From positions 24,958,640 to 25,022,639 of the forward strand of contig NC_058342.1 in NCBI RefSeq assembly GCF_905475395.1: a DNA stretch of 64,000 nt. Direction: 5' to 3'. Under the pieces are notes generated by a model that saw only the letters and a list, made by a program, of their open reading frames with translations, did no database searches and had not been told where the DNA came from. This DNA is from Chrysoperla carnea (taxonomy: Eukaryota; Arthropoda; Insecta; Neuroptera; Chrysopidae). A program made the position numbers and the translations under genes. How positions within the stretch are numbered: position 1 is the stretch's first letter; every line of letters begins with the position of its first letter. Shown piece after piece: positions 48,201 through 58,394 of the stretch.

Positions 48201-51200
48201 CGATGTTAAATAAAAAAAAAAAAAAGAACAAAATTAAAAAATAAAACATAAAAAAAAAAATGGTTCTAAAAAGGTAGGAAGTACGTACCAGGACTATTTT
48301 CTGCTGCGCCCGTGACATATTGGCGTACTAGGGAAAGAGACAAGAAAAAACGCAAAATATAAAGTACAATTTGTTTTTTGTTTGTTTCGAATTTGTTAAA
48401 ATTAAAAAATTTAGTATAAATACAGAGTGGCCCAGTGGCTCTCTCTTAATTTTTTTTTTCTTCAATTGTCATTTCCGTTTTTGATTTCTCATTTATTGTG
48501 TGCTTTTTGAATTTTGAATTATTATTTTTTAATGCAAAATAAATATTTGTGAATGTACTAACCCAAAAAATTATATAAACAAACATAAAAAAAAATAAAA
48601 GATTTCTCTGAGCTACTCTGTACATAAATATAATAATAATAATAATAAGTAAATTATGGTTTTTTTTTTTTAATTAAATTAAATTCTGTAAAATATAAAA
48701 TTATAAAAAATAAATAAAAAAAATTAAGATTTAATTTTTTTATAACTACTCTCTTACATTTTTTAACTTCCCGCTTTATATCGAGTATATGAGAATAAAT
48801 GATCAATCGAGAGACTAAAAATTGCCAAAACAAGCATTTTGTTTTGTGCCGGAAAACGATCCCAATCGGAGTTACAGATCTCCAATTTCTTTAGATTTAT
48901 ACCGAATCTATCCTCGTTTTCGAAAAAAGTTGTTGGTATTTTGATTTGAAACATTTTTATAATATTTAAGAGTTTTTTCAAAACATTTGTTCTAAAACGG
49001 AATCGATTCGGTACAAATCTAAAAAGTTCTGAGGTCTGTAGCAACCAAAATGCTTGTTTTGGCATACCCTATAAGCCTCTCGAATATTGACTATTCATTC
49101 TGATACACCTGGTATATAAATTAATTTTTAGTCGTATTTTCCACAAAAATATTGACTTATGCCCTGCCTCGAAGGTCAACTGAGAGTGATTGAAGTGAGG
49201 ATGGATATAGTTGAAATATCATATTTATCCGCTTTCATAGACTTTGTGCATCTTTACAACCTCTCCAAATGAGCTAGCTAAACAGTCGAACACCTGCAAT
49301 GTCAAGGAAGATCACTTTGGGGGTGTCAAATTTCCAGAACTCCTACCACTTTTTTATATCGGTATATTTTCAAAAAATCTCACCAAATTGAATCAGAGTA
49401 TTGAAAAGTTGTTGAGATAACGAGAACAACGGGCTTGCTAGAAAATGGTTAAAGCGTCCGGACGTGTCAATTGGGAACTGTAAACTACTGTTGAATGAAT
49501 ACCTTCTAGAAAAAGCTTAAGTAGAGAGAGAGAAACGAACTTGTGGATAGGACCATTTTACGCTATTATTAGATATTGGCTGGGAGGGGCTAGCATGCTG
49601 AGCATTTGAGCCTAACTGTGTATCATAGCTATCACAGGTGTCAGAGTGACTAGGAAGAAATGCTGACTCTCCACTGCGAATGCCCGCCCAGTTCTCGCTA
49701 GGAGATGATTTTTAGATATTACAATGGACCTCAAAGCCTTAGTGTGTTCGACTTGTGTCGAAAATGATATTTCGACATAAAAAGAAGGGGGAAAGGGGGC
49801 TAGAAAGATCATATTTCCAAAAAGCACAACTTCCACATAAATGTCTAATCCTCTAACTCATCTTATTATGTGCAGGTCTACACGGCTTTAAAAACCGTGA
49901 AAAATGTGATTTAGTGGTATAAAAAAAAGGGACGAGGGTTTGAGAAGTTGCCAACCATGACATCCTTGACTTTAATACAAATTTTCAACCCTTTATCTTT
50001 GTTTGGAAGGGCTGTATAGATATGCAAAACCTTAAGAACCGCGTGGTATAAATAAGAGAGAAGGAGAATTAGAAAGTTCATACCCCTAAAAGACACTAAT
50101 ATAACAGTTTCCAACCCTATGGCTCAATTTGGCAAGATTGTGGAGATGTGTAAAGCCTTGAAAATAACGAAAAACGTATTTTATGATATAATCTTTCCTC
50201 GTTGATCGTCGATACAGTGCATAAGTCTGTATTTCCAAGGAAAATATGGCTATTAAAATACAATTTATTTTGAAGAAAAATGAAAAATTTTATGGATATA
50301 CATATATAAAAAAAAAAAGAAAATACTAAAAAAACAAATCAACAAATAAAACAACAGAGCGTAGCAAATAAATGAAAAACAAAAATATTAAGGTGGAAAG
50401 GAAAAACAAAACAATAGACAGGTTTATTTTTTTGTATTTAAAAAAACAAAAAGAAAAAACTAAACATAAAAGGTGGGATTGAAAAATATTTGCAAAAATA
50501 TGTTGATTTTAAGTTTTCTGTATGATTCTGAATTATTTATTTTTTATATTAAAGGCTCACTCTTTTTTTTTTAACAAAACTGTTTCAACTGCTCTGATTA
50601 CAAAAACCCCATCATGCCCCTTTCAAATAACCAAATTTGTAAGCCTACACAAAGTGTAGAAGCGGGCTAAAATTCATGCATATAATATATTGTTTATTAG
50701 CCAATTGAAAAACAGTTTTATTAAACGAAAAATAAAATTAAAAATAACCAAATTTTTACAGCTTTTTTGATTATGTGTGATATTTCTTCGTAGTATTTTT
50801 ACTCCTAACGCCATTCAGTAAACTTTGATTTTTAAAAGCAATTTTAGATTTTTGATTTATCGTGTTCAGAATTTTTCTACGATCATCCTCATAACTTCAT
50901 GTCATATGTGAGAAGCTTAGAAATTTAATTATTTTGAAATACATCAAATTTAGTTTAAAAAGTTTTCCTTTTTTTGACAAAAATGGAAAGATTATATACA
51001 GGGTGTTCTATTATTGACAGCAGAAAATTATACCATTAGATTAAGCTTATCAAGACAAATAGAAAAGCTCTTTACCAAATTTCGATTTGAGGCCTACTTC
51101 GGGAGATGTGACTATGGGAAAAATAAAATGATTTATGCATTCACAGACAAATCAAACTCATTAAACGAACTAGGTGTCACTTTAGAATATAGAGGAGGGC

Positions 51201-58394: not shown

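What the first reader, a model, noticed from the sequence alone, without database searches (positions are those of the whole stretch)
48289..58394. Same RRM loop made variable twice: 10-residue option in RRM1, 13-residue option in RRM2
In the RRM1 exon, two acceptors in the same phase (58364 and 58394) give DK..-GQSLGYG or a version with [10 protein letters not shown] inserted. In RRM2, a 39-nt exon at 48289-48327 inserts [13 protein letters not shown]. Both insertions fall at phase-1 junctions in the loop between beta2 and beta3, immediately before RNP1. This loop commonly contacts RNA, so the gene could produce four combinations of RNA-binding surface. The splice sites and frames are read directly; regulation is inferred.
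Basis: partly seen in the sequence, partly recalled or inferred. Interest (0 to 1): 0.85.

Follow-up and report, generated by a model that had tools for sequence, protein, structure and literature searches.

The report
Splice-variable RNA-binding loops in lacewing ELAV
The ELAV gene of a green lacewing appears able to lengthen the same loop in two of its three RNA-binding domains by small splicing choices; the device in the second domain is already known from bees, while the one in the first domain looks real but still needs RNA evidence.

Summary
The gene is the one canonical ELAV/Hu gene found in this genome, which matches Chrysoperla carnea inChrCarn1.1 by scaffold count and 4 of 6 chromosome sizes. 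RRM1 and RRM2 are each cut by a phase-1 intron at the same place before RNP1. These are published junctions J2 and J5 (Samson 2008).

The RRM2 cassette (48289-48327) ranks first of 296 candidate microexons in its 10.8-kb intron and sits where honeybee elavl2 has exon 3a, proven by cDNA.

The RRM1 option is the new part. The 30 nt between acceptors 58394 and 58364 are exon-like: the stretch before 58364 holds 11 G in 28 nt, where 34 control intron ends hold 0-5. The only full branch-point match lies 28-31 nt before the distal acceptors and 61 nt before the proximal one. The distal acceptor is a NAGNAG pair (58397/58394), adding 11 or 10 residues.

I also found the ancient hinge microexon (38893-38931), so 8 to 12 isoforms are possible, not 4. 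No transcript or orthologue could be examined; use of both RRM1 acceptors, and any effect on RNA binding, is inferred. Verdict: new variant of a known kind.

The parts
58261..58364 (-). second half of RRM1 (exon RRM1b), short form; first residues [11 protein letters not shown]
   Evidence: sequence and translation; RRM_1 match
58365..58394 (-). 30-nt 5' extension from the distal acceptor, adds [10 protein letters not shown] in the RRM1 beta2-beta3 loop
   Evidence: GC 53%, 12 G of 30, exon-like
58395..58397 (-). extra CAG of a NAGNAG acceptor pair (adds one more residue: 11 instead of 10)
58398..58432 (-). intron end before the distal acceptors, with branch-point-like TATTGAC whose A lies 28, 31 and 61 nt before exon starts 58397, 58394 and 58364
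53306..53459 (-). exon RRM2a (VSYARPSS...CDNIT|G), donor G|GTAAGA
48289..48327 (-). 39-nt cassette exon, adds [13 protein letters not shown] in the RRM2 beta2-beta3 loop; same position as honeybee exon 3a
   Evidence: bee exon
42236..42467 (-). exon RRM2b and start of hinge ([14 protein letters not shown]...TGRF); no in-frame open upstream acceptor within 100 nt, so no match to bee exon 4a
38893..38931 (-). 39-nt hinge microexon, [13 protein letters not shown] followed by R; fits the published exon 4c consensus L/MLXI/V/MX2-5GV/L/IXR
   Evidence: 1 of 168 candidates; consensus
35917..36241 (-). exon with RRM3 and stop codon

Best explanation
This is the single canonical ELAV/Hu gene found in a green lacewing genome. 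Two ancestral introns, J2 in RRM1 and J5 in RRM2, cut the beta2-beta3 loops at matching places in the same phase, so small in-frame additions there lengthen a loop without breaking the domain. In RRM2 the addition is a 39-nt cassette exon at the position of bee exon 3a. In RRM1 it is a competition between acceptors: the branch point and tract serve the distal NAGNAG pair (58397/58394), giving the 11- or 10-residue addition, while the acceptor 30 nt further on (58364) gives the ancestral short loop. With the hinge microexon, one gene can make 8 to 12 protein forms. Shown here: sites, frames, composition, rank among candidates, position. Inferred: use of both RRM1 acceptors, neuronal regulation, possible self-regulation by ELAV through U-rich tracts at the cassette and hinge exons, and an effect on RNA or protein binding.
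For: ELAV/Hu family match and one canonical copy among the candidates scored, with one diverged ELAV/Sxl-like gene elsewhere. The three PDB alignments shown (HuD, HuC, HuR) have 10- and 13-residue gaps in these two loops; listed Sxl spans are 23 residues shorter than the query's. Cassette ranks 1 of 296 (score 11.5, next 5.4), 3 of 200 simulated introns as good, and bee exon 3a lies in the same loop. RRM1: the -30..-3 stretch before 58364 holds 11 G and 15 G+C of 28, where 34 controls hold at most 5 G and 9 G+C. In the 24-site matrix two in-frame open competitors beat the site 58364, where 0 of 24 controls have one; with 35 controls and a cut of -1 (chosen) 1 of 35 has one, against two here. 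Branch-point match 28/31 nt before the distal sites. Hinge microexon: 1 of 168 candidates fits the published consensus. U-runs: 2.3% and 0.9% of sampled intron positions are as rich as cassette and hinge exon.
Against: No transcript or orthologue was available. With the 35-site matrix the proximal acceptor (1.12) scores above the distal ones (0.52, -0.39), so the stricter test 'competitor at least as good as own site' fails there; the 24-site matrix favours both distal sites, the recalled weights one of them. The stretches before 58394/58397 are themselves at or just over the edge of the controls: 5 G (control maximum 5), 10 and 9 G+C (maximum 9), and the 100 nt before 58397 have 38% GC, so local composition explains part of the contrast. 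The bee study sequenced 45 clones and describes no RRM1 variant. The RRM1 acceptor is not U-rich (40% of positions as high). The trained matrix ranks the cassette acceptor 5 of 35, although its tract is 25 of 28 pyrimidines. By splice signals alone the hinge exon does not stand out (68 of 200). Both inserts together lower the Pfam RRM_1 score from 157.4 to 131.0 bits.
Confidence: 0.6

Rival explanations
1. The RRM1 extension is constitutive: only the distal acceptor(s) are used and RRM1 always carries the longer loop, with at most a one-residue NAGNAG wobble. Only RRM2 and the hinge are alternatively spliced.
For: Branch-point spacing fits the distal sites, the first AGs after it; the proximal acceptor has a G-rich, exon-like lead. 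Drosophila fne had an RRM1 mini-exon in its single polypeptide reported in 2008.
Against: The proximal site keeps CAG|GG in the exact ancestral position and frame, ranks 7 of 35 among controls and scores above the distal sites in that matrix, and gives the loop length of HuD, HuC and HuR.
Confidence: 0.25
2. The distal RRM1 acceptors are not used; the 30 nt are ordinary intron end and RRM1 is always short. RRM2 cassette and hinge microexon are real.
For: An open frame over 30 nt is not rare by itself; the bee study describes no RRM1 variant; the proximal site is better in the 35-site matrix; local GC is raised (38% in the 100 nt before 58397).
Against: The 30 nt exceed all 34 control intron ends in G and G+C, and 0.4% of 30-nt intron windows are as G-rich. 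The first-AG position after the branch point favours the distal pair.
Confidence: 0.13
3. The RRM2 cassette is a chance microexon.
For: 3 of 200 simulated introns hold one with as good a recalled score.
Against: Rank 1 of 296 with a wide gap, loop position as bee exon 3a, similar length (39 nt here; bee 42 nt by my arithmetic from gel product sizes), exon-like GC of 51%.
Confidence: 0.04

Closest known systems
Honeybee (Apis mellifera) elavl2, exons 3a, 4a, 4b, 4c, 4d (PMC8553928)
   Same: single ELAV/Hu gene; exon 3a between the exons of the two RRM2 halves, in the beta2-beta3 loop; hinge microexon 4c; combinatorial isoforms
   Different: bee has a second RRM2 loop option by an alternative acceptor (4a), for which no counterpart was found here within 100 nt; no RRM1 option is reported in bee
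Drosophila fne RRM1 mini-exon and rbp9 RRM2 alternative mini-exon (Samson 2008, PMC2529313)
   Same: additions at J2 (RRM1) and J5 (RRM2), phase 1, just before RNP1; the paper proposes these junctions as sites of functional change
   Different: there spread over two paralogues, 45 nt as a mini-exon in fne and 15 nt alternative in rbp9; here both in one gene, and the RRM1 addition is an acceptor choice
Cricket fne splice variants (Watanabe and Aonuma, authors recalled; cited in the bee paper)
   Same: insect fne gene with several splice forms
   Different: described in the bee paper as variants in linker regions; original not seen

Membership tests
ELAV/Hu family | family profile TIGR01661 over its curated cut-off | tested here: met
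   554.9 bits against 279.1; sex-lethal model 228.4 against its cut-off 486.2
ELAV/Hu family | two tandem RRMs, hinge, third RRM | tested here: met
ELAV/Hu family | junctions J2 and J5 in phase 1 at matching positions before RNP1 | tested here: met
   G|GG and G|GC joins; published positions
ELAV/Hu family | neuronal expression | not testable with these tools
   no transcript data
bee exon 3a type RRM2 loop cassette | short in-frame cassette between the RRM2 half-exons | tested here: met
   sites and frame only; bee description; actual skipping and inclusion not testable
bee exon 3a type RRM2 loop cassette | sequence homology with bee exon 3a | not testable with these tools
   bee sequence is in a figure and supplement not held
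ELAV hinge microexon (bee 4c, fne, HuB-D) | microexon between RRM2 and RRM3 with consensus L/MLXI/V/MX2-5GV/L/IXR | tested here: met
   38893-38931, MLAINKGLQ plus junction R; 1 of 168 stop-free candidates; the first automatic pass without the junction codon printed no match
RRM1 loop additions at J2 (fne mini-exon type) | separate mini-exon inside the J2 intron | tested here: not met
   best candidate in the 35-kb intron scores 9.4 and 27 of 100 simulated introns do as well; the addition here is an acceptor choice

The most novel reading that the evidence does not exclude
One insect gene tunes the same loop of two tandem RRMs independently, by an acceptor choice in RRM1 and a cassette in RRM2, so that the pair of RNA-binding domains acts as a two-position combinatorial switch; what Drosophila spreads over paralogues fne and rbp9 is here kept in one ancestral-type gene by splicing.
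Probability: 0.5. Interest if true: 0.58.

Novelty: new variant of a known kind. Interest (0 to 1): 0.42.

Why it matters
If both RRM1 acceptors are used, one gene could vary the loop next to RNP1 in both tandem RNA-binding domains. That would make it testable whether insects with a single canonical ELAV gene obtain by splicing what flies obtain with paralogues, and whether junctions J2 and J5, shared by vertebrate and invertebrate genes, are kept because they allow such changes (Samson's 2008 proposal).

Tried and rejected
Relatives: scans of genome contigs (59 pattern matches, none confirmed) and viral contigs (5 pattern matches, none confirmed) gave no ELAV gene, as expected of collections of prokaryotes and viruses. 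Papers: six peptide strings of the inserts and flanks occur in 0 held papers; the searches for ELAV splicing listed no paper whose title or opened passages describe an RRM1 acceptor choice. That covers only the held library and capped lists. Papers opened: PMC8553928 (abstract, outline, sections 7 and 14, part 1 of section 15, passages), PMC2529313 (abstract, outline, passages), and passages only of PMC8904962, PMC6915785, PMC9631114, PMC11551757 and PMC10116181. The bee figures and supplements were not seen.

A possible retrocopy carrying the RRM2 insert (C3:79333872, L015/L039) was considered and rejected: the apparent long loop seems to run into an intron, since the RRM2b match resumes 1.5 kb on; it is a diverged ELAV/Sxl-like gene. 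A 45-nt cassette candidate in the RRM1 intron (extended coordinates 72567-72611) was rejected as chance (27 of 100 simulated introns). A bee-4a-like acceptor before RRM2b was looked for and not found within 100 nt. first joined exon 1 two bases too far and gave stops; corrected.

Controls: 76 of the 87 myosin hits gave 59 neighbouring pairs (count); 21 introns were resolved and 32, plus 3 acceptors of this gene, so 24 sites and 35. In one search, 1 of 35 controls has a competitor at least as good as itself; that site (AAG, score -9.6) is evidently misplaced and was dropped by eye to give 34. The cut of -1 used was set after the scores were known. The Ion_trans hits were not used. Splice weights are recalled, not trained. 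The simulated introns are first-order Markov sequences in 1-kb blocks, not strict shuffles. Structure prediction was not run, because spliced proteins are not letter-for-letter in the DNA.

Full report
What is there. The finding lies in a minus-strand gene whose spliced product matches the ELAV/Hu profile TIGR01661 with 554.9 bits (cut-off 279.1). The host assembly has 559,487,470 bases in 337 contigs. The window would then lie on the X. A search of the genome (39 candidates scored, 12 matches) finds one canonical ELAV gene and one diverged ELAV/Sxl-like gene on C3; the other matches are weaker RRM genes.

Exons. RRM1a ends ...DKVT|G at C6:25052425, some 35 kb upstream and outside the window. 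RRM1b is 58364-58261, RRM2a 53459-53306, RRM2b 42467-42236, RRM3 36241-35917. Joined, they give 338 aa; every combination of the options keeps the frame, 338 to 375 aa in 12 forms.

RRM2 option. The 39-nt exon 48327-48289 ([13 protein letters not shown]) has acceptor TCTCTTTCCCTAG and donor CTG|GTACGT. Scored with recalled splice weights, it is first of 296 stop-free phase-1 candidates in the intron (11.5; next 5.4), and 3 of 200 simulated introns reach it. Its GC is 51%; 2.3% of 39-nt intron windows reach that. With a matrix trained on 35 sites of this genome its acceptor ranks only 5 of 35, since those sites are T-rich and poor in C. In honeybee, exon 3a lies in the loop of RRM2, between beta2 and beta3 in the authors' model, and is included dynamically in the brain. 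Its length works out at 42 nt from the statement that 3-4c-5 and 3-3a-4d-5 products have equal size (my arithmetic).

RRM1 option. Before RRM1b stand three CAG acceptors in one frame: exon starts 58397, 58394 and 58364. Evidence that the 30 nt between are exon: the -30..-3 stretch before 58364 holds 11 G and 15 G+C, while 34 control intron ends hold 0-5 G and 1-9 G+C; 0.4% of 30-nt intron windows have as many G and 2.5% as much G+C as the 30 nt. The only YNYTRAY match in the 136 nt before 58364, TATTGAC, has its A 28, 31 and 61 nt from the three exon starts. Competitors in frame and open that score at least as well as the site itself: 0 of 24 controls and two at 58364 in the 24-site matrix. 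With 35 controls and a cut of -1, set afterwards: 1 of 35, and two here.

Against the RRM1 option: in the 35-site matrix the proximal site scores 1.12 and the distal ones 0.52 and -0.39, so they do not exceed it; in the 24-site matrix (-1.2 against -0.63 and 0.19) both do, and with recalled weights (0.99 against 3.87 and 0.48) one does. The stretches before the distal sites are themselves at or just over the control edge (5 G; 10 and 9 G+C), and local GC is raised (38% in the 100 nt before 58397). The distal acceptors are thus probably real; whether the proximal one is also used cannot be settled from DNA.

Hinge option. A third optional exon was not in the finding: 38931-38893, 39 nt, phase 2, [13 protein letters not shown] followed by R. 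Of 168 stop-free candidates in the hinge intron it is the only one that fits the published consensus of exon 4c, L/MLXI/V/MX2-5GV/L/IXR, once the junction codon is read; a first pass without that codon printed none. Splice signals alone would not single it out (68 of 200 simulated introns). In Drosophila fne a hinge microexon directs the protein to the nucleus and is included when ELAV is lost.

Structure. In the three PDB alignments shown, HuD, HuC and HuR align across both RRMs with 10- and 13-residue gaps in the two loops, the exact gap edge varying by a residue or two; the listed Sxl spans are 23 residues shorter than the query's. Pfam RRM_1 matches with and without the inserts (131.0 and 157.4 bits). 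That the site is the beta2-beta3 loop follows from its place just before RNP1 and from the bee paper's model of RRM2. The RRM1 insert has no basic residue and one acidic one, the RRM2 insert one of each, so new RNA contacts are not obvious. No structure was modelled.

Regulation. U-runs (T of 5 or more, within 150 nt) around the cassette and the hinge exon are high (2.3% and 0.9% of sampled intron positions as high), not around the RRM1 acceptors (40%). Self-regulation by ELAV at the first two is therefore a fair guess; for RRM1 nothing points to it.

Known or new. Samson 2008 named J2 and J5, noted their matching place relative to RNP-1, found a mini-exon at J2 in fne and an alternative one at J5 in rbp9, and proposed these junctions as sites of change. 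The bee paper found two RRM2 loop options and reports no RRM1 option; 45 clones were sequenced. What is added here is both loops in one gene and an acceptor choice in RRM1. I rate it a new variant of a known kind, with RRM1 alternative use at about 0.6.

Noticed in passing
window 38893-38931 (-): Ancient ELAV hinge microexon, 39 nt, matching the published insect-vertebrate consensus.
   Followed up: yes
window 58394-58398 (-): NAGNAG acceptor pair at the distal RRM1 acceptor, adding 10 or 11 residues.
   Followed up: partly
L039 (C3:79330500-79340000), about 2848-5806: Diverged three-RRM ELAV/Sxl-like gene; its second half of RRM1 and first half of RRM2 lie in one open frame, so its intron positions differ.
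   Followed up: partly
C6:25031206-25031250 (-), extended window coordinates 72567-72611: 45-nt phase-compatible candidate exon in the RRM1 intron with a strong acceptor and weak donor; not beyond chance.
   Followed up: partly
window 11977-14954 (+): PX domain followed by leucine-rich repeats on the plus strand; resembles nischarin (name recalled).
   Followed up: partly
window 4006-4875 (-): 289-codon open frame with no Pfam match at E 0.001.
   Followed up: partly
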